Shown here piece by piece: positions 177-33,053 of a stretch of 33,440 bases of DNA. Each line of letters starts with the position of its first letter. Position 1 is the first letter of the stretch. A program made the position numbers and the translations under genes. The notes beneath the pieces are model-generated. The model saw nothing but the letters and a program-made list of their open reading frames with translations. It did no database searches and was not told the origin of the DNA. Source of the DNA: Sulfurospirillum sp. (GTDB lineage Bacteria > Campylobacterota > Campylobacteria > Campylobacterales > QNZT01). The stretch covers positions 1 to 33,440 of the forward strand of contig JANTGR010000007.1 in the NCBI GenBank assembly GCA_024762875.1. Reading direction: 5' to 3'.

Positions 177-656
177 TTACCTGCTTTGATGTCCCATGCC
201 CATTGCATTTGTCTGGAAATCGCCATCAAGAAAGTCATAGGCTTCACCAAAGCCAAAAACTGCGCGTCCAGTTTGCGGAGTCAGCTCAAAAAGTTGAAAA
301 TCAACCATATTTTCGTAAATATCTGCATAATCGCCAAACTTCTCTCTAAAGAGTATCATGATGTCATTAAAAGTGAGACAATTGCGTTCAATGGGTTTGA
401 CTTGCATATCAAATGTAATCCGTTTTCTTGCAAATAAATTTGCACTTTTTGATTCATCTTCTATTATCATGATAGAAATGCTTTTATTATTGGAGAGATT
501 TTGTGTATGTTTTGCCATTTGAGAGATACAAATATAAAATTTATGTTCATTTTCAACAAAAGGGGCATAAGAGCTGTGGGCTGTTAAATCTTTGTTAATG
601 GAAGCAATCTGCATGGTGGAGAAGGAGGCGATGAAGTCCCAGGGGTTTTGTTTCAT
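177..656 (-). CDS. pyridoxamine 5'-phosphate oxidase / HugZ-like family protein
   Basis: 159 aa ORF; split-barrel-like features and GRAVFGFGEAYDF near C-terminus resembling HugZ/HutZ proteins. Confidence 0.6.
   Translation of the reverse strand: MKQNPWDFIASFSTMQIASINKDLTAHSSYAPFVENEHKFYICISQMAKHTQNLSNNKSISIMIIEDESKSANLFARKRITFDMQVKPIERNCLTFNDIMILFREKFGDYADIYENMVDFQLFELTPQTGRAVFGFGEAYDFLDGDFQTNAMGMGHQSR
465..474. repeat. TATCATGATA iterated palindrome
   Basis: Exact 10-mer; in HugZ-like CDS, read IMI. Confidence 0.95.
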
Positions 657-763
657 GAAAATGCCTTTTTACGTTAATAGTAACAAAATAATGGCTGTTT
701 TTACCAATAAAATTTAAAATATCTATCTGTTTATACAAATTTAAAAATTTAAGCTAAAAACTA

Positions 764-792
764 TTGACTTATTTTTGTTATTAGGGTAAAAT
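764..792 (+). promoter_or_regulatory. sigma70 promoter of tRNA array
   Basis: TTGACT (764-769), 17 nt spacer, TAAAAT (787-792), upstream of tRNA-Pro. Confidence 0.6.
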
Positions 793-830
793 CTCATCTC
801 TCAAAAGCTTATAAAAGTTTTTGAAAACCT

Positions 831-908
831 CGGAGTGTAGCGCAGCCTGGTTAGCGCACCTGGTTTGGGACCAGGGGGTCGAAGGTTCGAATCCTTTCAC
901 TCCGACCA
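831..908 (+). tRNA. tRNA-Pro(TGG)
   Basis: Cloverleaf with loop TTTGGGA, GGTTCGAATCC T arm, encoded CCA. Confidence 0.95.
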
Positions 909-935
909 TCAAAAATTAAAATATAGATGACATAT

Positions 936-1013
936 GGTGAGATTAGCTCAGCTGGTTAGAGCACTGGTTTGTGGTGCCGGGGGTCGCGGGTTCGAATCCC
1001 GTATCTCACCCCA
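936..1013 (+). tRNA. tRNA-His(GTG)
   Basis: Cloverleaf with anticodon GTG, extra G-1, encoded CCA. Confidence 0.95.
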
Positions 1014-1034
1014 TTATTTTAAAAAAACGGTTAA

Positions 1035-1111
1035 GCGCTCGTGGCTCAACTGGATAGAGCAACAGATTTCGGCTCTGTAGGTTACAGGTTCGACTCCTGT
1101 CGAGCGTACCA
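1035..1111 (+). tRNA. tRNA-Arg(TCG)
   Basis: ACAGA-TTTCGGC-TCTGT anticodon arm, encoded CCA. Confidence 0.93.
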
Positions 1112-1122
1112 TCCTAAATTAC

Positions 1123-1153
1123 GATAAAATGAGCAAAGCTCAGTTTATCTACG
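1123..1153 (+). repeat. tRNA-downstream hairpin element, copy 1
   Basis: GATAAAATGAGCAAAGCTCAGTTTATCTACG, 11 nt 3' of tRNA-Arg(TCG). Confidence 0.55.
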
Positions 1154-1266
1154 CTTACGCCGCTGAGGCGCTAAAGCTATTACTTCTTTGAAGTAAAGAA
1201 AGTTTCAACTAAAGCTTTGCTTTTGGCAAGAGTTTTATTTTACTTGATTAATTAGTTGTTTTTTGT

Positions 1267-1343
1267 GCGCTCGTAGCTCAGCTGGATAGAGCATCGCCCT
1301 TCTAAGGCGAGGGTCTCAGGTTCGAATCCTGACGGGCGTACCA
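1267..1343 (+). tRNA. tRNA-Arg(TCT)
   Basis: TCGCC-CTTCTAA-GGCGA anticodon arm, encoded CCA. Confidence 0.95.
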
Positions 1344-1359
1344 CCCTTATTATTGTTGT

Positions 1360-1444
1360 GCGGATGTGGTGAAATTGGTATACACGCCAGACTTAGGATC
1401 TGGTGCCTCACGGCGTGAAGGTTCAAGTCCTTTCATCCGCACCA
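1360..1444 (+). tRNA. tRNA-Leu(TAG)
   Basis: CCAGA-CTTAGGA-TCTGG anticodon arm, long variable arm, encoded CCA. Confidence 0.95.
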
Positions 1445-1472
1445 TCTTTTAACTCAATTTTTTTCAATCTTT

Positions 1473-1557
1473 GCGCGCGTGGTGAAACTGGTAGACACGC
1501 ATGATTCAGGTTCATGTGCCTTCGGGTGTGGAAGTTCGACTCTTCTCGTGCGCACCA
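1473..1557 (+). tRNA. tRNA-Leu(CAG)
   Basis: CATGA-TTCAGGT-TCATG anticodon arm, long variable arm, encoded CCA. Confidence 0.93.
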
Positions 1558-7611: not shown

Positions 7612-7639
7612 ATAAACGGCTATCATGATAGCCGTTTAT
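7612..7639. repeat. 28-bp perfect palindrome between infC and rpmI
   Basis: ATAAACGGCTATCATGATAGCCGTTTAT, self-complementary over all 28 bp. Confidence 0.95.
7621..7630. repeat. TATCATGATA iterated palindrome
   Basis: Exact; centre of 28-bp palindrome, intergenic. Confidence 0.95.
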
Positions 7640-10287: not shown

Positions 10288-12282
10288 TTAAATTTCCTTA
10301 GTTTTACGCTTTTTTTCAATAAAATGCTTAGGCTTTACAATCAGTTCGATATCTTCATGGAGGTGGCGCGCATGATATTGCCGTAAATAGATGGCTCTGT
10401 TATGACCCAAATTTACTTTCAATAACGGTCTGTAGAAAAAGAGTGAAACACCGTAAATTTTCCCCCATAAGGCCAAAGACCAGGGCACAATTTCATAACT
10501 CTCTATTAAGTCAGTATCAATATATCTGCTTTTTGCCCCCACGAGTGTCATAGTGTGATGGGTAATAAAAAGTTTAAAATAAAACCATTTAAAAAGTTTT
10601 TTCACCACCAGATAGGTAACCCCTGTCAAGATCGCTGTATCTGCTATCATGATAAGATAGGACATAGGTATCTCATATCCCTCTGCCCACATATCGTTGA
10701 TCGGTGTTATCTGTACGATCAAATAGACAAGCCAATTTGCTATCATGATAGCGATCATCACAGCGCACAGGATGATAAGCATAGAGAGTATGGGATTACT
10801 CAGACGGCGGTAAAATATAACTTTGCGTTTGTTGATCTTTGCATGAAAGAGTTTGTAAACAAAGATGACATAAAAAAGCAGCAGAGAAAGAGAAAGTACC
10901 ATCCCCTCATAAGGGAAAAGCAGATAATCTTTTTTCAATACAGCATAAAGATGTTCTGGCCTAAAAGTCTCATTGAGAACTTTTTTATAGTAACTTGGTG
11001 TAATAGATGCAAAGAGTGTATAGGGATTTTGGACACTAGTGCCGTAAAATTGCTCAAATGCTTCGTACGTATCAATCATCTGCATCAATGAAGCCGTATC
11101 GTGCTCCATTGCATTGTATTGATTTTTGTGCTTTTTGAGAGCTTGGATGATGACCGAGTTATTGATATCTCCTGACCCTTCTTTAAACATGATGGATTTT
11201 GCCACTTCAATATTTTTTTCATATACAGCATGCGGAGTGCTAAACTGCAGCATGGCGATACCTGCATTATGCTCGGTTTGCAGATATCCTGACGGGCTGT
11301 ATGCTTCACCGCTTTGAGAGCGAAATATTTTTCCCAGCCGATTTGCCAAATCTTCTATATACGTCTCTATCACCACCTTTTTTTTCGGATCATTGATAAG
11401 CAGTTTCACACCAAGTGTGACTTGTGGACTCTCCTCCATACCGCCTTTGTACCGGATAAATGGTTTATGATCCAGCAGGGCATCTTTGATCATAGGCTTT
11501 TTTGTGCTCTTTCCCTCTCGTTTAGGTGCTTTTCCAAAGGTTTTTGCGATCACCTCTTTCATGCGTGGAGTATAAAATTTTCCGGCAATTTTCAGTGTCA
11601 TATTTCCCGGATAGTAATAATCATGATAATGTGCCATCACCTCTTTCAATGAGAATGTTTTATTGTTATACTTATAGAGCGACTCATCTTGGTATTTTAG
11701 TTTGTCAGCTGTTGTATCGATACCAAAACTGTCTCTAAAGACATTTGCCTGTGGAGGAAACAGGCTTTCCCATATATCTATGTAGTCAATTATCTTAAAC
11801 CTGTCAGGCAGATAGTGATCTACCCAGTTTGGCTCCCCTATCTCGATCTGTAAAGCATGTTTTTCAATCTCTAAATCTTTTTGTGTCACATTTTTATCCA
11901 GTAACATTTGGGCAAAAGTTTCTGTCAGCCAATAGGCACTTTCAGGATTTATCGTTGCAATGAAATTACTCTTTTTGTATTCGGTGAAGCCATTGAGATA
12001 GGTAGCACCCTTCTCCGTGATCAGGCTGTAATAATCTCCATCTTTGATCCGGGTGTCACGAAAAATCATATGTTCTACAAGGTGCGAGACGCCGGCAGTA
12101 GCTTCTGTTTCAGCATCCATACCAACATTGACATTGACTACCAACTGGGTATTTTGTGCTTCCAAATCAGGTAGGAGATAGATATGCATGCCGTTTTGCA
12201 GCTGGTAATGTATGAGGTTTTCATAGGGGTTTTTAGCAAAAAGAGAAGAGAGAAAAAAAAATAAAACAAGGAAAAAACGCAT
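10288..12282 (-). CDS. M16 family (insulinase-like) zinc peptidase with C-terminal membrane domain
   Basis: 664 aa; HXXEH motif in SHLVEHMIFRDT, signal peptide; C-terminal third has several TM helices. Confidence 0.85.
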   Translation of the reverse strand: MRFFLVLFFFLSSLFAKNPYENLIHYQLQNGMHIYLLPDLEAQNTQLVVNVNVGMDAETEATAGVSHLVEHMIFRDTRIKDGDYYSLITEKGATYLNGFTEYKKSNFIATINPESAYWLTETFAQMLLDKNVTQKDLEIEKHALQIEIGEPNWVDHYLPDRFKIIDYIDIWESLFPPQANVFRDSFGIDTTADKLKYQDESLYKYNNKTFSLKEVMAHYHDYYYPGNMTLKIAGKFYTPRMKEVIAKTFGKAPKREGKSTKKPMIKDALLDHKPFIRYKGGMEESPQVTLGVKLLINDPKKKVVIETYIEDLANRLGKIFRSQSGEAYSPSGYLQTEHNAGIAMLQFSTPHAVYEKNIEVAKSIMFKEGSGDINNSVIIQALKKHKNQYNAMEHDTASLMQMIDTYEAFEQFYGTSVQNPYTLFASITPSYYKKVLNETFRPEHLYAVLKKDYLLFPYEGMVLSLSLLLFYVIFVYKLFHAKINKRKVIFYRRLSNPILSMLIILCAVMIAIMIANWLVYLIVQITPINDMWAEGYEIPMSYLIMIADTAILTGVTYLVVKKLFKWFYFKLFITHHTMTLVGAKSRYIDTDLIESYEIVPWSLALWGKIYGVSLFFYRPLLKVNLGHNRAIYLRQYHARHLHEDIELIVKPKHFIEKKRKTKEI
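10645..10654. repeat. TATCATGATA iterated palindrome
   Basis: Exact; M16 CDS, read IMI. Confidence 0.95.
10741..10750. repeat. TATCATGATA iterated palindrome
   Basis: Exact; GCTATCATGATAGC; M16 CDS, read IMI. Confidence 0.95.
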
Positions 12283-12283
12283 T

Positions 12284-12730
12284 TTACTCTTTATCTTTTT
12301 TTCTAAAGGTGATAATCAAAATCAACAATACTCCCAAATCTATCATGACATCAGCAAAATTGAAAATAGCAAAATCAAATCCACAATGCCAATAGACATA
12401 ATCGACCACTCCCGGATGGATAAAGCGATCAAGCAGGTTACTCACGCCACCTCCAAGAACCAGACCCAGGGCAAAGGCATACTCTTTTAGTACGGCTTTT
12501 TCCCATAACAAATAGCCCAAAACAGAAGTGATAAGCAGGACTTGAATGTATTTTAAATATTCACCCAAAAAGGCAAACATAGAAAAAGCAACACCTTTGT
12601 TGAAAGTGAGGTTGAGGGATATGCACTGGCTATTCCAGTCAAATCCACCCAAAAATAGCTGCTTGATTAATTGGTCGATGACAAATACGGCAACAAAAGC
12701 GATGAGAAAAAGTTTGGTTGTTTTAGCCAT
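12284..12730 (-). CDS. lspA: lipoprotein signal peptidase
   Basis: [42 protein letters not shown]. Confidence 0.96.
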
Positions 12731-14063
12731 TGAGTTTCTTAGTAAAAAATTCTTCTAACTCTTCCATTCTATCATTAACCAGATTAGAGTCTTTGCCTTC
12801 CAGTAATAATCTAAGCAGATTTTCAGTACCAGAATAGCGTATCAGTGGTCTGATATGATCACTTTCCAGTTTTTCTATCATTTCTTGATATCCTTCGATT
12901 TTTTCCAATGGTACTTTTTTCTTGATTTTGATATTTCTTAAAATTTGAGGATACAGTTCAAAAGGATCCAGGACTTCACTGGCTTTTTTCTTCTTTCGAA
13001 TCAGATGTACGACTACCTGTAAAGAGGCTGCCAAAGCATCACCTGTTTTGGCATAATCACTGAGTATGACATGTCCGCTCTGCTCGCCTCCCAGATTGAG
13101 TCCCTCTTTTTGCATCACTTCCAGGACATATTTATCACCAACATTACATCTATAGAGCTCGATATTGCGTTCTGTGAGATAATCTTCCAGTGCCTGGTTG
13201 CTCATCACGGTCGCGACGACACCATTGTTTGAAAGTTGATTGCTTTGTTTGAGGTGGCAGGCAAGTACTGCGATGAGTTTATCACCATCTACAATTTCCC
13301 CATTCTCATCTACAACGACAATTCTATCTGCATCGCCATCAAAGGCAAATCCGATATCTGCACGCAGCTTAAGTACCTCTTCACTCAGCTTTTGCGGATG
13401 CAAAGCACCACAGCCTTCATTGATATTGCGTCCATCAGGTTGGTCGTTGATAGAGATAACATCCGCTCCCAACTCTCTAAAAACAGTAGGTGCTACTTTG
13501 TAGGCGGCACCATTGGCAGTATCAAGCACAACACGCAAACCATTGAGTGCCATGGAACGCGGCATAGAATTTTTGATATGTACGATATAGCGACCGATAA
13601 CGTCATCAATTCTTTTTGATTGGCCGATCTCCATGTTGAGTGCCTGATGCTTTTCTATGAGTGCATCATCGAAATAAATTTTTTCTATTTGTGCTTCGAT
13701 CTTTTCACCCAGTTTGTTACCGCGCTTATCAAAGAACTTGATACCATTATCATGATAGGCATTGTGGGAAGCACTGATCATGATACCGGCATCACATCTG
13801 AGATCTTCTGTCAAAAAGGCGATTGCAGGTGTTGGCATCGGACCGATTTGACGGACATCATAACCCACAGCAGTCAATCCCGACACAATAGCATTTTCTA
13901 TCATATAGCCGCTTTTGCGTGTATCTTTTCCTACCAAAATCTTATTTGTTACAGAATGTTTTCTAAAGTAAATACCTGCAGCCATTGCCAAACGCATTGC
14001 CAGTAATGCAGTAATCTTTTCTCCTGCCATGCCCCGTACGCCATCAGTTCCAAAAAGTTTCAT
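12723..14063 (-). CDS. glmM: phosphoglucosamine mutase
   Basis: [54 protein letters not shown]. Confidence 0.97.
13748..13757. repeat. TATCATGATA iterated palindrome
   Basis: Exact; glmM CDS, read YHD. Confidence 0.95.
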
Positions 14064-15711: not shown

Positions 15712-16296
15712 CTAATCCACCAGAATAATATCCAACCCGCCAAGCAGCCTTACTGCATCATAACGGCTAAACTTTGCCCCTTTGATAACATTGACTCTCA
15801 CGTCGATGTCAAAATTGCTTGCGTGGGCAAGGTTTGCTTCAGTGAGGTTTGTATTTCTAAAAAGAGCACCCATAAAGTCAGTATCACGTAAATCTGCTTT
15901 GGTGAGATCTGCCTCGCGAAAGTCCACTTCTCTTGCTTCACATTCACGTATCATGATAGATTCCAGTTTGAGTCCCCAAAAAGAAGAGTCATCTAAAACA
16001 GATCGCAAGAATTTTGGCTCTCGCTGTGTCAGTGCAGACCAGGATGCTTTGGTCCAATCTACTCCTATAAGTTTGCAATCCTCAAAACTACAGTCATTAA
16101 ACTGTGAATCTATGACTTGCATCAAGGAGAGGTCACAAAAGTGGAAGTGACAGCCAAGAAACTTACACTGCTTAAACCGTGCGTGTGATAAGTCACATTT
16201 GCTAAAGGTACAATCATCAAACTCTGTGCAGCTGATCTCTTGTCCTGAGAGGTCGAGTGCCTCAAATACTTCGGCAAAATTATCTTCCTGTATCAC
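15712..16296 (-). CDS. pentapeptide-repeat protein
   Basis: 194 aa with A(D/N)LxxA-type repeats: READLTKADLRDTDFMGALFRNTNLTEANL. Confidence 0.85.
   Translation of the reverse strand: MIQEDNFAEVFEALDLSGQEISCTEFDDCTFSKCDLSHARFKQCKFLGCHFHFCDLSLMQVIDSQFNDCSFEDCKLIGVDWTKASWSALTQREPKFLRSVLDDSSFWGLKLESIMIRECEAREVDFREADLTKADLRDTDFMGALFRNTNLTEANLAHASNFDIDVRVNVIKGAKFSRYDAVRLLGGLDIILVD
15949..15958. repeat. TATCATGATA iterated palindrome
   Basis: Exact; pentapeptide CDS, read IMI. Confidence 0.95.
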
Positions 16297-16328: not shown

Positions 16329-17039
16329 TTAAACCAAGTAAGCACTGACCAATCCGATAACTCCGCCAAAAACACCACCCCAGACAACCAGCCAGCCAAG
16401 GTGTTCGCGCATCAAATCCTGCATCATCTCTTTGACCAGCTGTGGGGAGAGTTCATTGAGGCGATTCTGCACAATTTTGTCGATAGAGTGTATCAAGTCA
16501 TCACTCAAAGCAGAGTTTTGCAAATGTCGGTTCATCTCTGTTTTGAAGGAATCAGATGAGACAATTTTACTGACAGCTGATTTGAGTTTATTGGAGAAAG
16601 GTTCCTTGAGTTTTTCCAGGGCACTTTCCCCGCCAAACATTCCAAGTGCTGCTCCAAACTGTGATTCCATCACTGTTTTGGAGAGGGCATCAAAAGCAGG
16701 TGAAAAGTCAGTTTTCTGTACGAGCGGTGCCAGATCAATCTTTTTTTCCTCTTTTGCAAAAAAATTATTGATTTGTTCATGGCTGAAAAACTGTTTCATC
16801 ATCATATCCCGAATAGCATCTTTGAACTCTTCAAAACGCAGCTCTATGATACCTGAACCATAGAGAAAAGGGACTTTTTCAAAAAGCATGTGAATGGCAA
16901 GGTGATTGGTAAGTGCACCAGAAAGTGCAAATAGTCCGGCATAAAGCAGTGGTCTATGCCAAAACTCTGGTAAAATAAATGCTATCATGATAAGCATAAG
17001 AGCGATGAGATTTGTGAGAAGTGATTTTGATAATTTCAT
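16329..17039 (-). CDS. DUF445-like membrane protein
   Basis: LFALSGALTNHLAIHMLFEKVPFLYGSGIIELRFEEFKDAIRDMMMKQFF; C-terminal TM. Confidence 0.75.
   Translation of the reverse strand: MKLSKSLLTNLIALMLIMIAFILPEFWHRPLLYAGLFALSGALTNHLAIHMLFEKVPFLYGSGIIELRFEEFKDAIRDMMMKQFFSHEQINNFFAKEEKKIDLAPLVQKTDFSPAFDALSKTVMESQFGAALGMFGGESALEKLKEPFSNKLKSAVSKIVSSDSFKTEMNRHLQNSALSDDLIHSIDKIVQNRLNELSPQLVKEMMQDLMREHLGWLVVWGGVFGGVIGLVSAYLV
16983..16992. repeat. TATCATGATA iterated palindrome
   Basis: Exact; DUF445-like CDS, read IMI. Confidence 0.95.
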
Positions 17040-17768: not shown

Positions 17769-19642
17769 TGAGAACCTTAAAAAAAATAGCAACCAAAAAA
17801 AACTTCACGATAGATTTTCACTGTACATTAAAAGAGGCGATGTATCAAATGCGCCAAAATGCAGATGGATCCGTTGTTCTTTTAAATGACAATAAACCTG
17901 TTGCGATTTTGACAGAGAGTGATATCATCAATGCTTTGGGGCAAAAGATGGACTTGCAGGAAAAAGCGTATAGTTTTGCAACCAAAAAAGTTATTTCTAC
18001 GCATGAAAATAGACCGATAGACTTTGCTTTTAATTTTCTCAGTGAGCACAATATCAGACGAATCGTTTTGACAGATAGTCAGCAAAAGTTCGCTGGTGTG
18101 GTACTTCAAGAGGATCTGTTTGATTATTTGGAGGAAGATGTCTATAAGGTAGATTTGCAGATTTCTCATATCAAAAAGCGTCAAAATGAGATGGTGACGG
18201 TAGAAAGAGATGCATCACTTTTAAATGCGCTTGATTTAATGAAAAGTTACCATATCGGTTCGATTGTAGTGATGGAAGGGCAAAAATTTGTAGGTATTTT
18301 AACCGAAAAAGATATCCTGAAACTCACCTATCAAGAAGTTGATATGTCAGAAAAAATAGAAAAATATATGTCTTCTCCCGTCTATAGCGTTGAGGAAAAT
18401 ACCTTGGTGACAGAAGTCATAGCATTGATGAAAATAAAAAAAATACGGAGGATTCTGGTCACGGATTCGTATGGTGTTATGTTGAGTATTTTGACAAATC
18501 GCGACATCCTGAAACAGATCAAAGGCAATTACAGCCGCATCCTGCAAATCAAGATAAAACATGCACAAGAAATTATGGATCTTTTACCAGAAGCGATCAT
18601 TGAGGTATTTGATGGAAAAGGAAATCCGATCATTCACTGGATGAATAAAAAGGCAAAAAAAATTTTTGGAGAGGGACTGATCGATAAAAAGTTAATCACA
18701 GTTTTTTCACAGGATGATTGGGAGTCGATATACAGGCACTTTCAAAAGCAATCTTCTCTTTCAAATAAAAGAGTGACCATAAAAAATCTCAGTTTTGAAG
18801 TTTCAGGTACGCTCTCAAAAAATCTACACAACAGCTATATTAAACTGATTTTCAAAGATGTTACAGAACATGAAAAGACAAAGCAAAAGTTGCAAGATGA
18901 GATCGATAAACAGATAGAAAAACGTCTTGAAAATGAGTATCTCCTGATGCAGCAGTCCAAACTGGCTACCATGGGAGAGATGATAGGACATATTGCCCAT
19001 CAATGGCGCCAGCCACTTGCCCAGCTGGGCGGCATCTTTATGAATCTGGATGCTGCATATGAATTTGAAGAGTTAACACCGGAGTATTTCAAAAAAAAGG
19101 TGCAAAATGGTAACGAACTGATCAAATATATGTCACATACGATTGATGATTTTCGTCACTTTTTCCAGCCAAATCACACCAAAGAAACCTTTGATCTGTT
19201 ACAATATATCCAGAGTGCAGTCAATATCATCACTGCGTCATTGACATATCATCATATAGTATTGGATGTGAAAAGACCAAAAGAGCCTATTTTTGTTTTG
19301 GGTTATCCTGGCGAATTTTCGCAAGTTGTGTTAAATCTATTAGACAATGCCAAAGATATACTGGTTGAAAGAAATATTGAAAAACCGCATATCATGATAG
19401 AGGTCAAAGAGGATGGTAAAAAAGTCACTGTGTTGATTTCTGACAATGGAGGTGGGATTGATGAAGCGATCATTGACAAGATATTTGATATCTATTTTAC
19501 GACCAAAGCGAAGAAAGGCGGAAGCGGCCTGGGACTCTATATGTCTAAACTTATCTTAGAGAGTAAAGAGATGGGCAAAATCACTGCCGGCAACGCAGAT
19601 AGCGGTGCATGTTTCGCTATCAAATTGACTAAAGGGCACTAA
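17768..19642 (+). CDS. CBS-domain sensor histidine kinase (tandem CBS, PAS-like, HisKA/HATPase)
   Basis: Four CBS-like repeats, H box MIGHIAHQWRQPLAQLGG, N/G boxes LNLLDNAKDIL, ISDNGGGI, GGSGLGLYMSKLI; start overlaps regulator stop. Confidence 0.88.
   Translation: MRTLKKIATKKNFTIDFHCTLKEAMYQMRQNADGSVVLLNDNKPVAILTESDIINALGQKMDLQEKAYSFATKKVISTHENRPIDFAFNFLSEHNIRRIVLTDSQQKFAGVVLQEDLFDYLEEDVYKVDLQISHIKKRQNEMVTVERDASLLNALDLMKSYHIGSIVVMEGQKFVGILTEKDILKLTYQEVDMSEKIEKYMSSPVYSVEENTLVTEVIALMKIKKIRRILVTDSYGVMLSILTNRDILKQIKGNYSRILQIKIKHAQEIMDLLPEAIIEVFDGKGNPIIHWMNKKAKKIFGEGLIDKKLITVFSQDDWESIYRHFQKQSSLSNKRVTIKNLSFEVSGTLSKNLHNSYIKLIFKDVTEHEKTKQKLQDEIDKQIEKRLENEYLLMQQSKLATMGEMIGHIAHQWRQPLAQLGGIFMNLDAAYEFEELTPEYFKKKVQNGNELIKYMSHTIDDFRHFFQPNHTKETFDLLQYIQSAVNIITASLTYHHIVLDVKRPKEPIFVLGYPGEFSQVVLNLLDNAKDILVERNIEKPHIMIEVKEDGKKVTVLISDNGGGIDEAIIDKIFDIYFTTKAKKGGSGLGLYMSKLILESKEMGKITAGNADSGACFAIKLTKGH
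19390..19399. repeat. TATCATGATA iterated palindrome
   Basis: Exact; histidine kinase CDS, read IMI. Confidence 0.95.
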
Positions 19643-20577: not shown

Positions 20578-20870
20578 AAAAAGGAGGTGCAGTGCTGGAA
20601 GACAATAGAAGAGATATTACATTGAGACAATGTGAGGCCATCATCCAGGAGGGTTTAGATGCAATGTATAAAGCGGATCGTGCTCTTTCTATCATCCACG
20701 ATATGTCGCTTTACAGCCAAAAATATAAAGACTTTGAAGCATACTGTGAAGATAAATGGGATATCGGTCAAAAACACCAGTATGTCTTTATACAGGGTAA
20801 ATCCCGCAAACCTGCTTTGCTATTACCACAAAACAACATAATAAGGAGAAAATATGAGTCAAACAAATGA
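20574..20870 (+). CDS. hypothetical small protein between argB and arginine kinase
   Basis: 98 aa ORF; ATGA overlap with argB and 17-nt overlap with next gene. Confidence 0.65.
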   Translation: MKKGGAVLEDNRRDITLRQCEAIIQEGLDAMYKADRALSIIHDMSLYSQKYKDFEAYCEDKWDIGQKHQYVFIQGKSRKPALLLPQNNIIRRKYESNK

Positions 20871-21894
20871 GTTTCCAAACCTGCCGGCAGATTGTAAATC
20901 TATGCTATGCAAGTATCTAACAAAAGAGGTTTTTGAGGCACTAAAAGATAAAAAGACCAGCAATGGCTTTACTTTGGCAGATGCTATCAACTCAGGTGTC
21001 AAAAATATCGACAGCGGCATTGGTGTTTATGCCGGTGATGTAGAGTCTTATGATCTTTTTGCACCGCTTTTTGATCCTATCATCAAAGAGTATCATGGCT
21101 TTTCGGCAACAGACAAACATGTCAGTAATCTCAACCCGGATGATCTCATCGCCCCAAATCCTGATCCTGATGGAAAATATATCATCTCTACAAGAATCCG
21201 TGTGGGGAGAAATGTAGATAATATGCCTTTAGGCCCAGCTATCACAAAAGAGCAGAGAAACAAGGTAGAAAAAGATGTTTCAGAAGCACTCATGGCGATG
21301 ACTGGAGAGTTGGCGGGCAGCTATTATCCTCTCAATGGGATGAGTGAAGAGGTCAGTGCAAAACTCATCGCTGATCATTTTCTATTTAAAGCGGGAGATA
21401 GATTTTTGGAGGCTGCAGGACTAAATCGTGACTGGCCCGAAGGAAGAGGAATCTATCATAATGATGATAAAACATTTCTTGTCTGGATCAATGAAGAAGA
21501 TCAATTGCGTATCATATCCATGCAAATGGGTGGCGATATCAAAGAGGTATTTAGCAGATTGATGACTGCTATCAAAGAGATAGAAAAAAAGGTACCATTT
21601 TCATTTACTGATCATCTCGGTTATATCACCAGTTGTCCTACAAATCTAGGAACAGCGATGAGAGCGAGTGTGCATATCGCTTTGCCAAAACTGGCAGAAG
21701 ATATGGAAACTTTTAAAGCTATCACCGATAAATATCATTTGCAAATTCGCGGCATCCATGGAGAACATTCAGAGAGTGAAGGCGGCGTCTATGATATCAG
21801 CAACAGAAGAAGACTGGGAGTCACTGAAGTACAGTGTGTACAAGATATGTATGACGGTGTCGTCGCACTGATTAAAAAAGAGCAATCACTGTAG
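20854..21894 (+). CDS. ATP:guanido phosphotransferase (arginine kinase-like)
   Basis: 346 aa; SGIGVYAGDVESYDLFAPLFDPIIKEYHG, ISTRIRVGRN, active-site loop CPTNLGTAMRASVHI, RGIHGEHSES. Confidence 0.95.
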   Translation: MSQTNEFPNLPADCKSMLCKYLTKEVFEALKDKKTSNGFTLADAINSGVKNIDSGIGVYAGDVESYDLFAPLFDPIIKEYHGFSATDKHVSNLNPDDLIAPNPDPDGKYIISTRIRVGRNVDNMPLGPAITKEQRNKVEKDVSEALMAMTGELAGSYYPLNGMSEEVSAKLIADHFLFKAGDRFLEAAGLNRDWPEGRGIYHNDDKTFLVWINEEDQLRIISMQMGGDIKEVFSRLMTAIKEIEKKVPFSFTDHLGYITSCPTNLGTAMRASVHIALPKLAEDMETFKAITDKYHLQIRGIHGEHSESEGGVYDISNRRRLGVTEVQCVQDMYDGVVALIKKEQSL

Positions 21895-21904: not shown

Positions 21905-21920
21905 GGAGGTTTCAACCTCC
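21905..21920. terminator. hairpin between convergent genes (possible terminator)
   Basis: GGAGGTT-TC-AACCTCC between the kinase stop and the DUF2628-like stop; no strong T run. Confidence 0.4.
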
Positions 21921-22403
21921 AAAGTGTTGAATCCCCGGTGACAAACTGGCTATCATGATAGAGGTATAGATAAATCCTGCCCAAGCGATAACATGTATGA
22001 CTATAGCAAGCCATATCGCCCATTGATTGACACCTCCGACGGTGCGAAGGGCTTGTAGTTGTTCCTCTTTTGTGCTTAAGTTTTCTTCGACCTGTGCCAA
22101 GGTCTTTTTATAGCGTTTATAGACAAAATATGGCAAGATACCACCAGAAGCCACCCACATGATAAGCCCCATGAAAGGAATCATACCCACGATAGCAAAC
22201 AGCAGAAAATAGACCAAAGCTTCAAGATACAATTTGCGATAAAGAAGATAAAATATACCGCCAAACATCGCCCACCAGGACCAATGCCACTGAAACTGAT
22301 CTACACCGGCTGCAGCATACTTGGCAAAGGCCTCTTCATAATACTGCTCTGACTTCTCTTTGTTGATATAAGCACGTATTGCTTCTGATTGTTCAAGATT
22401 CAT
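21912..22403 (-). CDS. DUF2628-like membrane protein
   Basis: 163 aa; WHWSWWAMFGGIFYLLYRKLYLEALVYF. Confidence 0.75.
   Translation of the reverse strand: MNLEQSEAIRAYINKEKSEQYYEEAFAKYAAAGVDQFQWHWSWWAMFGGIFYLLYRKLYLEALVYFLLFAIVGMIPFMGLIMWVASGGILPYFVYKRYKKTLAQVEENLSTKEEQLQALRTVGGVNQWAIWLAIVIHVIAWAGFIYTSIMIASLSPGIQHFGG
21951..21960. repeat. TATCATGATA iterated palindrome
   Basis: Exact; CTATCATGATAG; DUF2628-like CDS, read IMI. Confidence 0.95.
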
Positions 22404-22893: not shown

Positions 22894-22903
22894 TATCATG
22901 ATA
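22894..22903. repeat. TATCATGATA iterated palindrome
   Basis: Exact; supplies the MATE stop codon (TTA TCA TGA). Confidence 0.95.
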
Positions 22904-24185
22904 ATCTTCTCCCCGCTTTCCAAAACATCCAGCTCTGGATCAGGGTGCGGAAAAGAAAAAAGAGGACAAAAGATCCCCACAATGCCCAGTTGTAGTCGAT
23001 AGTTTTACTCATATGAAAAACAGCCAAAAAAAGAGCCATAGAGAGAAGAACAGCATCACGCATCGCTTTGGAAGCAGTCATCCCGATAAATATACCATCC
23101 CAGATAAAAGCACCAAAAGAGAGAACAGGCATCAGTGAAACCAGCCACATATAGGGCAATGCTGCTGTGATAAGCGCTTCTTGATTGGTATAAAGATGCA
23201 GGATACGCTCACCTGCCAATCCATAAACCAAAGAAAACAAAAGAGCAAAACCCGCACCCCAGTAAAAGCTGAATTTGACAGCTTTGTCAAACAATACCCA
23301 CTCTTTTGCACCATAGTATCTGCCAGCCAGGCTCTCTGCTGCATTGGCAAAGCCGTCAACAGCAAATGACATCCAGATGAGAAACTGCAGCAGCAGCACC
23401 ATAACAGCCAGTGTTGATTCACTATGTTTTGCTGATTGGGAATAAAAATATGCCAAAACAAAAGTCAGTGCCAACGTGCGGATAAAGATATCTTTATTGA
23501 CATGGAAAAAACGCAGAATTTTTGCTTTTTCAAAGCTTTCATGATAAGAGATAAACTGTAAGATAACATGATACCTCCTTATCATGATAACACCAAAAAC
23601 GACACCTGCATACTGTGCTATGAGTGTGCCGTAAGCTGCCCCTTCTATACCCATATGCAGATGATTGACAAAATAAACACTGAAGAGAATGTTGATGATA
23701 TTGATAAAGAGTGTCATCAAAAGTGGTATGATGGCATTTTGCAGACCAAAAAACCACCCCATGAGTGCAAATTGCAGCAGCACGGCAGGAGCTGTCATGA
23801 TACGAATGTGAAAATAGGCATCCACTTTTGCAGCATAGGCATCATCGATATTCATCAGATAAGAGGCAAGCGAGAGAATCGGGGTTTGAAACACAATGAG
23901 CACCAAAGCGATAAACAAGGCTATCATGATAGCACGGGAGAGCGTATTTGCGATGAGTTTATCATCTTGGTCTCCATAGGCCTGTGCTGTGATACCCGTT
24001 GTGCCCATGCGTAAAAACCCAAAACTCCCATACAAAAAGACAAAGATCATCGCCCCGGATCCCAGTGCCGCCAGATGTGAGACAGATAGATGCCCCATCA
24101 GCATCGTGTCCACAGCAGAGATAAGCGGGACGGAGATGTTTGAGATGATATTTGGGATAGCAAGGCGAAGGATTTGGCGGTTCAT
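22896..24185 (-). CDS. MATE family efflux transporter
   Basis: 429 aa, about 12 TM; IPNIISNISVPLISAVDTMLMGHLS. Confidence 0.93.
   Translation of the reverse strand: MNRQILRLAIPNIISNISVPLISAVDTMLMGHLSVSHLAALGSGAMIFVFLYGSFGFLRMGTTGITAQAYGDQDDKLIANTLSRAIMIALFIALVLIVFQTPILSLASYLMNIDDAYAAKVDAYFHIRIMTAPAVLLQFALMGWFFGLQNAIIPLLMTLFINIINILFSVYFVNHLHMGIEGAAYGTLIAQYAGVVFGVIMIRRYHVILQFISYHESFEKAKILRFFHVNKDIFIRTLALTFVLAYFYSQSAKHSESTLAVMVLLLQFLIWMSFAVDGFANAAESLAGRYYGAKEWVLFDKAVKFSFYWGAGFALLFSLVYGLAGERILHLYTNQEALITAALPYMWLVSLMPVLSFGAFIWDGIFIGMTASKAMRDAVLLSMALFLAVFHMSKTIDYNWALWGSFVLFFLFRTLIQSWMFWKAGRRLS
23580..23589. repeat. TATCATGATA iterated palindrome
   Basis: Exact; TTATCATGATAA; MATE CDS, read IMI. 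Confidence 0.95.
23922..23931. repeat. TATCATGATA iterated palindrome
   Basis: Exact; GCTATCATGATAGC; MATE CDS, read IMI. Confidence 0.95.
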
Positions 24186-24208: not shown

Positions 24209-24218
24209 TATCATGATA
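24209..24218. repeat. TATCATGATA iterated palindrome
   Basis: Exact; GCTATCATGATAGC; MATE 5' region. Confidence 0.95.
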
Positions 24219-24300: not shown

Positions 24301-24735
24301 TTATTTTTCAGCTGCCTTTGTCGTGATCATATCCATCGCTTTGCGCATCTTTTTTATCATTTTACAATCTTTCAGTTGGAAATTTTCGCTCCATTTTTGT
24401 GGGTCTCTATAGACTATTTTAGTGACATTTCCTACACGAAATACCAAGACTTTCATCGGCAAATCAAGCGCAGTAAGCGGGTCTTTTTGCATCAGTTTTG
24501 TGCCTAGTTTGGGGTTGCCAAAGAGAATGACTTTGGTAGGAGTAAGTGCCAAGCCTGCTTTATCTGCTCCTTTTTTGTGGTCTATGATACTAAAGACACC
24601 CAAGCCCTTTTTTGCTTCAACGATATGTTCTATCTTTGTGATAGTGTCATCCACGCTAAGCGCACTATCTTTGATGATCAAATCCGACGCGGCTAACGGC
24701 AACACCGCCAATACGATAAATAATAACTTTATCAT
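24301..24735 (-). CDS. DUF302 family protein
   Basis: 144 aa with signal peptide; VVEAKKGLGVFSIIDHKKGADKAGL-type N-terminus, LFGNPKLGTKLMQKDPLTALDLPMKVLVF. Confidence 0.85.
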   Translation of the reverse strand: MIKLLFIVLAVLPLAASDLIIKDSALSVDDTITKIEHIVEAKKGLGVFSIIDHKKGADKAGLALTPTKVILFGNPKLGTKLMQKDPLTALDLPMKVLVFRVGNVTKIVYRDPQKWSENFQLKDCKMIKKMRKAMDMITTKAAEK

Positions 24736-24739
24736 GATA
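24730..24739. repeat. TATCATGATA iterated palindrome
   Basis: Exact; TTATCATGATAA; contains dapF stop and DUF302 start. Confidence 0.95.
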
Positions 24740-25493
24740 ACGCCTCTACTTCGATACTGGCTTCAAATACTTTTGCAACTTTACCTTTGAAAAATATCTC
24801 TCCATCACGGATAGACAGTGTCAGCTCCTCTTTGCTTGTAGGATAGACTTTGGTGACATCCGGTACATCGCCATTTTGATTGGCAGCATAAAAACAGGCT
24901 GCCATTCCAGTGCCGCAGGCCAGAGTTTCATCTTCGACTCCTCGCTCATAGGTACGCACATAGAGCTCTTTTGTTTCCGGATCAATTTTGACAAAATTGA
25001 CATTGGCATTGTAGTTGTTGCGCATCTGCCTTGCCATATCTTTGTCATAGACATTCAAATCATCCACAAAAGTCACAAGATGTGGTACACCTGTATCATA
25101 GAGACTCCACTTCAGCCCTTCGGCGACGATGAGCTTATCAAGGATTTTTGGCTTTGTCAGCTTGACTTCTGCATTATCGCCTGTCACGGTTGATTCTATC
25201 ACACCTGCTATCGTGAGAAACTTCATCTCATTGCCAGCCAGAGCATTTGTATAGGCATAGTGTGCAGCAGCGCGAGAGCCATTGCCGCACATCTCTGCAT
25301 CGCTTCCATCGGAGTTGTAAAACTGCCACTCAAAATCATATGCCTGATGTGGCAGTAAAACGATCAACCCATCTGCACCAATACCCTTTTGACGGTGGCA
25401 GAGCTGTTTGGCAAGTTCATTTCTCGGCTCATTGAGAAAGGTATGAAAGATGACAAAGTCATTACCGCTGGCATTGTACTTGGTGATTTGCAT
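24732..25493 (-). CDS. dapF: diaminopimelate epimerase
   Basis: KYNASGNDFVIFH, AEMCGNGSRAAAHYA, ERGVEDETLACGTGMAA. Confidence 0.97.
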   Translation of the reverse strand: MQITKYNASGNDFVIFHTFLNEPRNELAKQLCHRQKGIGADGLIVLLPHQAYDFEWQFYNSDGSDAEMCGNGSRAAAHYAYTNALAGNEMKFLTIAGVIESTVTGDNAEVKLTKPKILDKLIVAEGLKWSLYDTGVPHLVTFVDDLNVYDKDMARQMRNNYNANVNFVKIDPETKELYVRTYERGVEDETLACGTGMAACFYAANQNGDVPDVTKVYPTSKEELTLSIRDGEIFFKGKVAKVFEASIEVEALS

Positions 25494-29846: not shown

Positions 29847-29856
29847 TATCATGATA
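29847..29856. repeat. TATCATGATA iterated palindrome
   Basis: Exact; intergenic, upstream of TPP promoter cassette 1. Confidence 0.95.
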
Positions 29857-30088: not shown

Positions 30089-32170
30089 ATGAACATCAAA
30101 ACACTATCCGTCTTTACAGCTATCATGATAGCCCAGAGCACGATATTTGCAGAAGAAGTAAATCTTGATCCTATCGTCGTTAGCTCAGACTTTCGAGATA
30201 CCAAACTTTCAAAAACAACCGGCAGTGTCTCTGTTGTCGGGGAAGAAGATATATACGACAAATCCAGTGATGCATTTGAAGATGTTATCGGCAGTGTCCC
30301 CAATGTCAACTTTACCAGTGGCGCATCCAGAGCACACTATATCCAGATCAGAGGTATTGGCGAGAGAAGCCAGTTTACTTCGCCGGTCAATCCTTCTGTT
30401 GGTATCATACTCGATGGTATCGACCTGTCACAAAGTGCACTTGGGATCACACTGTTTGATCTCCGTCAGATAGAAGTTCTCAAAGGCCCACAAGGGACAA
30501 CGTTTGGTGCCAATGGTCTTGCCGGTGTGGTCAATATCCAAAGCAATCAACCAACCAAAGAAACAGAAGCACACGCAGAAATGACCATCGGAAACTATAA
30601 CACGCAGGCGGCAGGTATAGCAGTAGGCGGAACTATCTTAAAAGATAAATTGCTTGGTAGAATGTCACTGTATAAAAACAGCAGTGATGGTTTTATGAAA
30701 AACAGCTTTTTAGATAAAAAAGATACAAACAATCTCGATGAACTCACACTAAAAGGGGCATTGAAGTGGCTGGTCAATGACAGGCATACGGTTGATTTAA
30801 ATTTACTGCACTTGGATGTAGACAATGGCTATGATGCATTTACATTTGACAACTCACGCACTTCACATGCCGATCAGCCGGGAACGGATGCACAAAAAAC
30901 AGATGCATTTTCACTGAAATCAACGTATCAGATCAATCCAGCTATGCACCTGGAAAGCGCACTCAGCTACAGTAAATCAGATATTGAATACAGCTATGAT
31001 GAAGATTGGTCTTATGTAGGTGAATTTGCTGATGATCTGTATCCTTATAGTTCATTTGACCAATATCTAAGAGACAGAAAGCAAATTGACTTTGATATGC
31101 GTTTGATTTCTGATGCAGACGGTAAAATACTCTCTGGTTCTACAGACTGGACTATTGGCACATATCTGAAGCATTTTTCAGAAGATTTTACTAGAAACTA
31201 TACTTATCTAGATGCGCCTTATACATCGGATTACGATACGGATAACCAAGCGGTATATGGTCAGCTGGATTCGTCTTTGAACGATAAATTGACCTTGGTA
31301 ACTGGGGTGCGGGCAGAACAGTGGAAAGCAACTTATACAGACTCAGATGCTGTTGATATCTCTACAGATGAACTCCTCTGGGGAGGTAAACTGGGATTAA
31401 AATACCAGCAAACTGCAAACCATCTCTTTTATGTAACGCTCTCCAAAGGCTACAAACCAGGCGGGGTCAATGCAGATAATTCTCTTTTGCCCTCACAAAG
31501 AGACTATAAAACAGAAAATCTATGGAATATCGACTTTGGCGCAAACACCAGCCATCTGGATGGACAGCTTACCAGCCGTCTGAACTTTTTTTATGGAAAG
31601 AGAAGAGATCAGCAGGTGAAAAGTTCTGTTGTGCAGGTTCGGGATGACGGCAGTACAAAATATACAGACTATTTAACCAATGCAGCCAAAGGACATTATG
31701 AGGGATTGGAGTATGAGCTTGATACCTATCTGGACAGTTTGCATCTTTTTACCAATGTAGGTTTGTTACAAGCTGAGTTTGATGAGTATGTGGATCCAAA
31801 TCCTGATGCTCTCAATGTTAACGGACGCTCTCCGGCACAATCTCCAAAATACCAGTACAATGTAGGTTTTGACTATACTTTTGCAGATACATGGACATTT
31901 AAAACCAATGTTGAAGGACGGGGATCTTACTATTTTTCAAACCGCCACAATGCCAAAGCAGATGCTTGCAATCTTGTAAATTCCAGCCTTTCTACTACAA
32001 ACGGAAAATGGTCAGCAACACTATGGGGGCGCAATCTGGCAGATACCGACTATCAGGTACGGGGATTTGGCTCTTTTGGAAACAATCCGGGCAAGGGCTA
32101 TGTCACAGAAACATATACACAGCAAGGTGCGCCTAGAACTTTTGGGATAACTGTTTCGTACGATTACTAA
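30089..32170 (+). CDS. TonB-dependent outer membrane receptor, predicted thiamine-related
   Basis: 693 aa; signal peptide, plug motifs (VVGEEDIYDKSSDAFEDVIGSVPNVNF, LKGPQGTTFGANGLAGVVNIQS), beta-barrel C-terminus GITVSYDY; follows TPP riboswitch. Confidence 0.93.
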   Translation: MNIKTLSVFTAIMIAQSTIFAEEVNLDPIVVSSDFRDTKLSKTTGSVSVVGEEDIYDKSSDAFEDVIGSVPNVNFTSGASRAHYIQIRGIGERSQFTSPVNPSVGIILDGIDLSQSALGITLFDLRQIEVLKGPQGTTFGANGLAGVVNIQSNQPTKETEAHAEMTIGNYNTQAAGIAVGGTILKDKLLGRMSLYKNSSDGFMKNSFLDKKDTNNLDELTLKGALKWLVNDRHTVDLNLLHLDVDNGYDAFTFDNSRTSHADQPGTDAQKTDAFSLKSTYQINPAMHLESALSYSKSDIEYSYDEDWSYVGEFADDLYPYSSFDQYLRDRKQIDFDMRLISDADGKILSGSTDWTIGTYLKHFSEDFTRNYTYLDAPYTSDYDTDNQAVYGQLDSSLNDKLTLVTGVRAEQWKATYTDSDAVDISTDELLWGGKLGLKYQQTANHLFYVTLSKGYKPGGVNADNSLLPSQRDYKTENLWNIDFGANTSHLDGQLTSRLNFFYGKRRDQQVKSSVVQVRDDGSTKYTDYLTNAAKGHYEGLEYELDTYLDSLHLFTNVGLLQAEFDEYVDPNPDALNVNGRSPAQSPKYQYNVGFDYTFADTWTFKTNVEGRGSYYFSNRHNAKADACNLVNSSLSTTNGKWSATLWGRNLADTDYQVRGFGSFGNNPGKGYVTETYTQQGAPRTFGITVSYDY
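30121..30130. repeat. TATCATGATA iterated palindrome
   Basis: Exact; GCTATCATGATAGC; TonB receptor signal-peptide codons, read IMI. Confidence 0.95.
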
Positions 32171-32272
32171 AAGAAGCGTGTAGGAAGGTTTCTTCCTATC
32201 ACGATACGCATACCATTCAAATCACCACCCATAAGACCATCGTTAGGGGCTTTATCACACTATTAACATTGT

Positions 32273-32824
32273 TTATCTTTTAAATGGGGCAAAAACCTTT
32301 GCAAAATCAAGCGAGATTTCACAACCAATGCCTTCAAACTCCAAAAGCTCTTTAGAAAAGTCCCCGACTTTGAGGTATGTGCCTTCTTTTAGTTGATAGA
32401 CTTTGGCTTTTAAGTCATCTGGATAGACGAGGATATAGTAGTTTACGCCCTCTTTTTCGTATATATCAAACTTGATGGTTTCATCTTTTTGCGCTGTAGA
32501 GGGGCTTAGGATTTCAACAATGATTTTGGGTGCTTTGGTGAGGTATTGTATGCCTTCATCATCACAGGTAAAGATAATATCAGGGCGCAGGATGGTGTTG
32601 TTTGAGATTTTCCAATCATTTTCAAAAGAGACAACACACTCTGGACATGCCTCATCACCAAGAGCATTTTTAAGTGCTACTAAAATTTCAGTTGCGATAT
32701 TTTGATGTACTCTGGTGGGTGCCGGTGCCATAGAGACAGGCATACCATCGATAAGCTCCCATTCTCCTTCCCATATCTCATAATCTTTATAGGTGTAGTT
32801 GAGTATTTCTGCTACAGACATCAA
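32273..32824 (-). CDS. Uma2 family (DUF820, PD-(D/E)XK-like) protein
   Basis: WELIDGMPVSMAPAPTRVHQNI, LRPDIIFTCDD, PKIIVEILSPSTAQKDETIKFDIYEKEGVNYYILV. Confidence 0.92.
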   Translation of the reverse strand: MMSVAEILNYTYKDYEIWEGEWELIDGMPVSMAPAPTRVHQNIATEILVALKNALGDEACPECVVSFENDWKISNNTILRPDIIFTCDDEGIQYLTKAPKIIVEILSPSTAQKDETIKFDIYEKEGVNYYILVYPDDLKAKVYQLKEGTYLKVGDFSKELLEFEGIGCEISLDFAKVFAPFKR

Positions 32825-32871
32825 GACTCCTTTTACTGTGGGTTTTGTCTATTATAGCATATTTTATACCC

Positions 32872-32881
32872 TATCATGATA
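32872..32881. repeat. TATCATGATA iterated palindrome
   Basis: Exact; intergenic, upstream of TPP promoter cassette 2. Confidence 0.95.
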
Positions 32882-32898
32882 CAATATTTACGCATAGC

Positions 32899-32933
32899 AG
32901 TTTAATTAAGATAACTTTTATCCTAATTAAACT
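32899..32933. promoter_or_regulatory. 35-bp dyad (15-5-15) before TAGAAT, copy 2
   Basis: AGTTTAATTAAGATA-ACTTT-TATCCTAATTAAACT; arms match 14/15; TAGAAT at 32933-32938. Confidence 0.8.
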
Positions 32934-32951
32934 AGAATAATAGTGTCAAAA

Positions 32952-33032
32952 CTCTCGGGGTGCCGTAAGGCTGAGATAGCGCAAGCTAGTCCCGCTGAAC
33001 TTGAACTGGGTAATACCAGCGTAAGGAAGAGA
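32952..33032 (+). promoter_or_regulatory. TPP riboswitch (THI element) upstream of thiC
   Basis: CTCTCGGGGTGCCGTAAGGCTGAGATAGC...CCCGCTGAACTTGAACTGGGTAATACCAGCGTAAGGAAGAG. Confidence 0.97.
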
Positions 33033-33043
33033 AAAGTACAAAC

Positions 33044-33053
33044 TATCATGATA
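33044..33053. repeat. TATCATGATA iterated palindrome
   Basis: Exact; CTATCATGATAG; between TPP aptamer and thiC start. Confidence 0.95.

What the first reader, a model, noticed from the sequence alone, without database searches (positions are those of the whole stretch)
465..33053. Highly iterated perfect palindrome TATCATGATA: 18 exact copies in 33 kb
Exact copies start at 465, 7621, 10645, 10741, 13748, 15949, 16983, 19390, 21951, 22894, 23580, 23922, 24209, 24730, 29847, 30121, 32872 and 33044. A rough base-composition estimate (about 38% GC) predicts about 0.1 copy per window, so enrichment is on the order of 100-fold or more. Flanks also lean palindromic: 11/18 have C before and 11/18 have G after; 7 are CTATCATGATAG and 5 are GCTATCATGATAGC. 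Single-mismatch versions also occur (354, 3628, 11619, 12341, 13776, 23537, 23564, 23793, 28977, 32197). Surrounding sequences are otherwise unrelated, so this is not a transposed long repeat. It behaves like cyanobacterial HIP1 (GCGATCGC family) but with a different sequence. Possible roles are a nucleoid-protein or chromosome-organising site, a methylation target (core TCATGA), a DNA-uptake or repair-recognition word, or a biased mutation/conversion process.
Basis: partly seen in the sequence, partly recalled or inferred. Interest (0 to 1): 0.92.

Follow-up and report, generated by a model that had tools for sequence, protein, structure and literature searches.

The report
Thousandfold-repeated conserved 10-base genome palindrome
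A bacterium related to sulfur-oxidising vent microbes carries the ten-letter palindrome TATCATGATA about a thousand times, evolution keeps the copies in place even at the expense of the encoded proteins, and related bacteria use other palindromes of the same design, so this is a real signal like one known only from cyanobacteria.

Summary
TATCATGATA occurs 18 times in the window (0.02 expected), 1,009 times in the 2.28 Mb genome (reversed control: 1), and 1,549 times in the only same-genus genome searched. In the two genomes 59% of aligned sites are identical, against 7-12% for control 10-mers at 74% overall identity. The conserved footprint is exactly 10 bp, synonymous codons inside it are frozen, and the word has made its tripeptides (IMI, YHD) the two most over-represented in the proteome. 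Relatives carry other palindromes of the same design: TTCATGAA, TACATGTA (over 1,000 copies in a Sulfurospirillum-like family) and TAGTACTA, all flanked Y...R. Three of the four have a CATG core. High-copy TCATGA genomes in the family all carry an m6A methyltransferase whose relatives sit beside NlaIII/IceA-type (CATG) restriction genes. The order-wide TACATGTA association is strong but imperfect (14 of 18). MutL is absent, which excludes the published mismatch-repair model for cyanobacterial HIPs. Best explanation: a methylation-marked self-recognition or uptake word spread by biased recombination, comparable to the Campylobacter RAm6ATTY rule. This is inferred; no reader protein was found and competence genes were not established. 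I found no report of HIPs outside cyanobacteria in the open-access library searched.

The parts
465..474 (.). TATCATGATA, inside ORF 177-656 (-), frame T|ATC|ATG|ATA
7621..7630 (.). TATCATGATA in a longer perfect palindrome aacggcTATCATGATAgccgtt, intergenic
10645..10654 (.). TATCATGATA inside ORF 10288-12282 (-), Ile-Met-Ile frame
10741..10750 (.). TATCATGATA inside ORF 10288-12282 (-), Ile-Met-Ile frame
13748..13757 (.). TATCATGATA inside the phosphoglucosamine-mutase-like ORF 12723-14063 (-), Tyr-His-Asp frame
15949..15958 (.). TATCATGATA inside pentapeptide-repeat-like ORF 15712-16296 (-), Ile-Met-Ile frame
16983..16992 (.). TATCATGATA inside ORF 16329-17039 (-), Ile-Met-Ile frame
19390..19399 (.). 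TATCATGATA inside sensor-kinase-like ORF 17768-19642 (+), Ile-Met-Ile frame
21951..21960 (.). TATCATGATA inside ORF 21912-22403 (-), Ile-Met-Ile frame
22894..22903 (.). TATCATGATA overlapping the 3' end of ORF 22896-24185 (-)
23580..23589 (.). TATCATGATA inside MATE-like ORF 22896-24185 (-), Ile-Met-Ile frame
23922..23931 (.). TATCATGATA inside MATE-like ORF 22896-24185 (-), Ile-Met-Ile frame
24209..24218 (.). TATCATGATA (GCTATCATGATAGC), intergenic
24730..24739 (.). TATCATGATA across the junction of ORFs 24301-24735 and 24732-25493
29847..29856 (.). TATCATGATA, intergenic
30121..30130 (.). TATCATGATA inside TonB-receptor-like ORF 30089-32170 (+), Ile-Met-Ile frame
32872..32881 (.). TATCATGATA, intergenic
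33044..33053 (.). TATCATGATA, intergenic

Best explanation
TATCATGATA, in the fuller form YTATCATGATAR, is a highly iterated palindrome of a Campylobacterales genus that works as a self-identity word. SHOWN: it is genome-wide, actively maintained at individual positions over exactly 10 bp, strong enough to change proteins, randomly spaced at about one per 1.5-2.3 kb, specific to this genus, and replaced in relatives by other palindromes of the same YT...AR design. INFERRED: an orphan D12-class m6A methyltransferase (G000 contig C98, next to selO in both genomes) methylates the CATG core on both strands. A DNA-binding reader, most plausibly of the DNA-uptake machinery, prefers DNA carrying the methylated word. 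Recombination of preferentially imported conspecific DNA then restores lost copies and spreads new ones, even where they alter an amino acid. This would be the Campylobacter jejuni rule (uptake only of DNA methylated at RAm6ATTY by CtsM) combined with the molecular drive known for neisserial and pasteurellacean uptake sequences, using a palindrome instead of an asymmetric word.
For: Genus-wide enrichment. Positional conservation: 79 of 133 sites exact in the sister, against 10.5% of same-composition 10-mers and 7.1% of other 10-bp palindromes (Fisher p about 1e-39 and 1e-29). Per-position identity is 0.80-0.91 inside the 10 bp and 0.50-0.82 outside. Where the tripeptide is conserved, the codons are identical in 31/33 (29% expected) and 11/11 (48% expected) cases. 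Proteome change: IMI 185 against 38 expected and YHD 126 against 12, top two of about 7,000 tripeptides, and the same in the sister. Poisson-like spacing. Fewer copies in coding than non-coding DNA, 0.40 against 1.04 per kb. Alternative words TTCATGAA and TAGTACTA and TACATGTA, all with Y before and R after. CATG methyltransferase: D12 family, no restriction gene beside it in G000 or G001, relatives in 17 loci next to IceA/NlaIII-type nucleases. In the family all six genomes with at least 400 WTCATGAW per Mb carry it, and none of the 11 without it exceeds 255 per Mb (p = 0.006). Order-wide, 14 of 18 TACATGTA-rich genomes carry it against 44 of 182 others (p = 1e-5). Same-phylum precedent: C. 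jejuni imports only DNA methylated at RAm6ATTY (PMC10046745).
Against: No reader protein, methylome or transformation data exist for this lineage. Competence genes were not demonstrated: motif searches of the 32% and 48% of the two genomes in hand found none, but they are insensitive. Known uptake sequences are not palindromes (PMC1939737). Four TACATGTA-rich genomes (G106, G129, G137, G186) lack any D12 methyltransferase, and several genomes with the enzyme lack the word (G002, G009, G013). Some methyltransferases of this family were transferred recently (L172/L173), so the enzyme is not always as old as the word. The association p-values ignore shared ancestry, and within family f20 or f16 alone p is only about 0.05. 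CATG avoidance does not differ between IceA-linked and unlinked loci (p = 0.28).
Confidence: 0.42

Rival explanations
1. The word is the binding site of an abundant chromosome-organising, nucleoid-associated or segregation protein that binds as a dimer; selection keeps the sites because chromosome structure needs them.
For: The palindrome suits a dimer; sharp 10-bp footprint; present in coding and non-coding DNA; the shared Y...R frame of all four words suits one evolving protein family; chromosome organisation has been proposed for HIP1 (PMC6604393).
Against: It does not explain why three of four words keep a CATG core with a matching methyltransferase. Replacing over 1,000 sites between genera of one family is hard for a structural site without a spreading mechanism. 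Spacing is random, with no periodicity.
Confidence: 0.22
2. The words are made by a biased repair or conversion process tied to methylation, as in Elhai's model for cyanobacteria, with no function of the word itself.
For: Cyanobacterial HIPs track methyltransferases for their core (PMC4390886). One-off variants lie mostly at the outer positions (TGTCATGATA 10-17x, CATCATGATA 6-11x) and rarely in the core, as that ratchet predicts.
Against: MutL is absent from all 23 genomes tested, including every high-copy genome searched, while the control rang in 11 of 14 genomes, so MutSL repair cannot do it. The published model needs G-meC; these words are AT-rich and the enzyme is an adenine methylase. 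Fixing many amino-acid changes argues against a weak bias. An unknown MutL-independent process (for example NucS- or MutS2-linked) is not excluded.
Confidence: 0.15
3. The word is a Chi-like signal for a RecBCD or AddAB nuclease, palindromic so that it works in both orientations.
For: Density of one per 1.5-2.3 kb and random spacing; conserved and found in genes; words differ between lineages.
Against: Known Chi sites are asymmetric and mostly GC-rich (general knowledge). It gives no reason for the CATG core or the methyltransferase association.
Confidence: 0.08
4. The pattern is ordinary: palindrome-prone mutation, codon or composition bias, or relics of a mobile repeat.
For: The genome is AT-rich and Ile codons are common.
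Against: O/E of 90-110; other 10-bp palindromes are not conserved (7.1%); no similarity outside the 10 bp beyond coding background; close relatives of similar composition lack the word.
Confidence: 0.02

Closest known systems
HIP1 (GCGATCGC) and the alternate HIPs of cyanobacteria
   Same: Palindrome at hundreds of copies per Mb, within genes as well as between them, lineage-specific replacement by other palindromes, methyltransferase predicted for the core, variants concentrated at the outer positions (PMC4390886).
   Different: Different phylum, AT-rich word, core CATG (or GTAC) rather than GATC/CGATCG or another GC-rich core, adenine methylase of another family, and no MutL. Elhai reports only cyanobacterial genomes.
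Campylobacter jejuni methylated uptake motif RAm6ATTY with CtsM (Beauchamp 2017, via PMC10046745)
   Same: Same phylum, palindromic core, m6A by an orphan methyltransferase, marks self DNA.
   Different: Six-base degenerate motif; iteration of it and positional conservation were not examined here; the enzyme family was not compared here; uptake in the present lineage is untested.
DNA uptake sequences of Neisseriaceae and Pasteurellaceae
   Same: 9-10 bp word, about one per 1-2.5 kb, in coding and non-coding DNA and enriched in the latter, lineage dialects, outward pattern of mismatched forms (PMC1939737; dialects and density from general knowledge).
   Different: Those words are asymmetric and not methylation-dependent; this one is a perfect palindrome with a methyltransferase.
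NlaIII/HpyIM-type CATG restriction-modification systems
   Same: The methyltransferase family here sits beside IceA/NlaIII-like nucleases in 17 relatives.
   Different: In G000 and G001 no nuclease gene lies beside it (orphan), and the iterated word is 10 bp, not 4.

Membership tests
Highly iterated palindromes (HIP class, defined in cyanobacteria) | A palindromic word at hundreds to thousands of copies per Mb, far above Markov expectation | tested here: met
   443/Mb in G000 and about 620/Mb in G001, O/E 90-111; below the 1,000-2,000/Mb typical of cyanobacterial HIPs
Highly iterated palindromes (HIP class, defined in cyanobacteria) | The genome encodes a methyltransferase for part of the word | tested here: inconclusive
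   D12 m6A enzyme present and orphan; CATG specificity inferred from IceA/NlaIII neighbours of relatives, not measured
Highly iterated palindromes (HIP class, defined in cyanobacteria) | Alternate words replace one another between related lineages | tested here: met
   TATCATGATA, TTCATGAA, TAGTACTA and TACATGTA in different genera or families
HIP1 in the strict sense | Sequence GCGATCGC in a cyanobacterium | tested here: not met
   Different word; Campylobacterales
Mismatch-repair-generated HIP (Elhai model) | MutS/MutL repair directed by G-meC in the word | tested here: not met
   MutL (PF01119) absent from all 23 genomes, control positive in 11 of 14
DNA uptake sequence | Short word over-represented genome-wide and maintained at its positions | tested here: met
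DNA uptake sequence | Cells take up DNA with the word preferentially | not testable with these tools
   Needs a transformation assay
DNA uptake sequence | Competence machinery (ComEC, uptake pilus) present | tested here: inconclusive
CATG restriction-modification system | Cognate restriction gene beside the methyltransferase | tested here: not met
   Neighbours in G000 and G001 are selO and housekeeping or unrelated genes; no IceA-like hit there although 17 relatives have one

The most novel reading that the evidence does not exclude
Campylobacterales use a family of methylation-marked palindromic self words with a common YT-[palindrome]-AR frame (TATCATGATA, TTCATGAA, TACATGTA, TAGTACTA). These are iterated over 1,000 times, spread by a drive strong enough to rewrite the proteome and switched between lineages, so that HIPs and DNA uptake sequences are one phenomenon that arose at least twice.
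Probability: 0.3. Interest if true: 0.92.

Novelty: new variant of a known kind. Interest (0 to 1): 0.82.

Why it matters
HIP1 in cyanobacteria has had no agreed function since 1995 and was treated as a cyanobacterial oddity. An independent set of such words in a phylum without MutL removes the only detailed published mechanism I found, and ties the phenomenon to methyltransferases in a phylum where methylation-dependent DNA uptake is known. Because TACATGTA occurs at high copy in a Sulfurospirillum-like family, whose relatives can be cultured, the question of what these palindromes do becomes directly testable. It is also a clear case of a DNA word imposing hundreds of tripeptides on a proteome.

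Tried and rejected
Composition or palindrome artefact: rejected. Long transposed repeat: rejected, no conservation outside 10 bp. Regular spacing or helical phasing: none. MutSL mismatch repair: rejected. A viral source of the word: scans of IMG/VR for TCTATCATGATAGA and for close pairs found no contig with host-like density, at most 3-4 local copies; inconclusive because only parts of contigs were seen. N6_N4-type methyltransferase as the enzyme: absent from G000. A second methyltransferase class in the four TACATGTA-rich genomes without D12: only G186 has a PF01555 hit. CATG avoidance as a statistical test of specificity: not significant between IceA-linked and unlinked loci (p = 0.28), although CATG is the first or second most avoided of 16 four-base palindromes in 35 of 69 loci. 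Competence genes by motif: no hit, uninformative. Beauchamp 2017 itself is not held and is cited through PMC10046745.

Full report
OBSERVATION. TATCATGATA occurs exactly 18 times in the 33,440-base window, at every coordinate given, against 0.02 in dinucleotide shuffles. The flank counts and the ten one-mismatch sites are also right, with one further variant at 19247. The window lies in a 2.28 Mb draft genome (G000) with 1,009 copies, where the reversed word occurs once. The only other genome of the genus searched (G001) has 1,549 copies against 7. G001 corresponds to the metagenome-assembled Campylobacterales genome Dive100_bin4.86, because the matching contig has the same length and methyltransferase coordinates. 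In the rest of the family the counts are 3 to 88, and elsewhere in the order mostly 0 to 20. In sampled DNA the O/E against an order-2 Markov model is 90 (G000) and 111 (G001), and no other palindrome approaches that.

ANATOMY. The word is a perfect 10-bp palindrome. Beyond it there is only a preference for a pyrimidine before and a purine after (C 51-61%, T 24-36%). One-mismatch forms are enriched mainly at the two outer positions; mutations in the TCATGA core are rare. Of 359 copies in 738 kb of G000, 270 lie wholly inside called ORFs and 59 between genes, which is 0.40 per kb of coding and 1.04 per kb of non-coding DNA. Inside genes it is read as T|ATC|ATG|ATA (Ile-Met-Ile) or TAT|CAT|GAT|A (Tyr-His-Asp), never in the third frame, which contains a stop. 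Spacing is Poisson-like in G000 and slightly clustered in G001, with no periodicity.

MAINTENANCE. In 272 kb of G000-G001 alignment (73.7% identity) 133 G000 sites are covered, and 79 (59%) are identical in G001. Controls: all 10-mers 7.8%, same composition 10.5%, CATG-centred 7.9%, other 10-bp palindromes 7.1%, one-off variants 14.7% (Fisher p about 1e-39 against same composition). Identity per position is 0.80-0.91 inside the ten bases and falls at once to the codon-periodic background (0.50-0.82) outside. On the first 141.6 kb of that alignment, where the tripeptide is conserved the codons are conserved too in 31 of 33 and 11 of 11 cases, against 29% and 48% expected from the same codons elsewhere. 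So the DNA word itself is maintained, not the protein.

COST TO PROTEINS. IMI is found 185 times in the sampled G000 ORFs against 38 expected (162 of them written by the word), and YHD 126 times against 12 (100 by the word). In G001 the figures are 412 against 60 and 257 against 17. They are the two most over-represented of about 7,000 tripeptides in both genomes. In other genomes of the family IMI is at expectation (14 against 17) and YHD at 14 against 5. The force behind the word therefore overrides amino-acid constraint at many places. ORFs were called with a simple longest-ORF procedure, so the counts are approximate.

OTHER WORDS OF THE SAME DESIGN. G008, G011 and G016 have TTCATGAA at 14-20 times expectation. 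G007 has TAGTACTA at 43 times, and its genome-wide WAGTACTW count is 1,339 against 228 WTCATGAW. TACATGTA exceeds 200 copies in 18 of 200 genomes of the order, up to 1,727, concentrated in family f20 and part of f16. A named Sulfurospirillum metagenome contig (L173) carries it at 26 times expectation, so f20 is probably Sulfurospirillaceae (inference). All four words have a pyrimidine before and a purine after in 84-91% of cases (the TAGTACTA, TTCATGAA and TACATGTA flanks rest on 16 to 25 sites each). The common formula is YT-[palindrome]-AR.

METHYLTRANSFERASE. G000 and G001 share one D12-class adenine methyltransferase next to selO, with no restriction gene beside it. Its relatives at about 60-65% identity occur in Campylobacterota, Flavobacteriia and others. 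In 17 loci the gene just upstream is an IceA/NlaIII-type nuclease (PF05315, E = 1.7e-9). IceA1 is 52% identical to NlaIII, and HpyIM beside it is CATG-specific (PMC2749054). CATG, the centre of three of the four words, is therefore the likely target; this is inference. In the family the six genomes with at least 400 WTCATGAW per Mb all have this enzyme, and no genome without it exceeds 255 (p = 0.006). For TACATGTA 14 of 18 rich genomes have it, against 44 of 182 others (p = 1e-5). Shared ancestry inflates these values. Four rich genomes lack any D12 enzyme, and some enzymes were moved recently between lineages. The association is real but not strict: the enzyme without the word is common, and the word without this enzyme exists.

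MECHANISM. Elhai's account of cyanobacterial HIPs uses methyl-directed MutSL repair (PMC4390886). MutL is absent from all 23 genomes tested here, while the control search was positive in 11 of 14 genomes, so that account cannot hold in this order. A process is needed that restores lost copies, spreads new ones despite amino-acid changes, leaves spacing random, and can switch words between genera. Uptake-biased recombination is the process proposed for known DNA uptake sequences (PMC1939737) and would do all of this. In this phylum C. jejuni imports only DNA carrying RAm6ATTY made by CtsM (PMC10046745). I therefore favour a methylation-marked self or uptake word (0.42). A chromosome-organising protein site comes next (0.22), then a MutL-independent biased repair process (0.15) and a Chi-like signal (0.08). 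The reader protein, the methylation and competence itself are not shown.

RELATION TO THE KNOWN. It works like a HIP and belongs to that class by density, palindromy and alternate words, but it is not HIP1 and not in a cyanobacterium. My searches of the open-access library found no report of HIPs in this phylum, nor of TATCATGATA in this sense, nor of TACATGTA with Sulfurospirillum. The library lacks most subscription papers, so prior description cannot be excluded.

Noticed in passing
G007 (same family), locus L104: TAGTACTA, 16 copies in 20 kb (43 times expectation), a highly iterated palindrome with GTAC core; no D12 methyltransferase in that genome and its cognate enzyme was not identified.
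   Followed up: partly
Family f20 and part of f16 (G040, G070, G082, G106, G177, G195, G204, G116, G137, G184 and others): TACATGTA at 200-1,727 copies per genome; four of the 18 rich genomes lack any D12 methyltransferase.
   Followed up: partly
L172 and L173: Nearly identical CATG-type methyltransferases on contigs labelled Sulfurimonas KA11 and Sulfurospirillum Kmv13: recent transfer, or a binning error in one metagenome.
   Followed up: no
G001, sampled DNA: GATC (O/E 0.18) and GGCC (0.19) are strongly avoided, suggesting past or present restriction of both words.
   Followed up: no
L220, L231: In flavobacterial loci GTAATTAC (15 times, 4 copies) and TTCGCGAA (29 times, 6 copies in 21 kb) are enriched; possible further iterated palindromes.
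   Followed up: no
window 20854-21894: A phosphagen (arginine-type) kinase gene, unusual in bacteria, judged by sequence from general knowledge.
   Followed up: no
G004, G018, G020 (genus g4): No D12 enzyme found, yet WTCATGAW is 7-10 times its reversed control, perhaps a decaying remnant of the TTCATGAA word.
   Followed up: no
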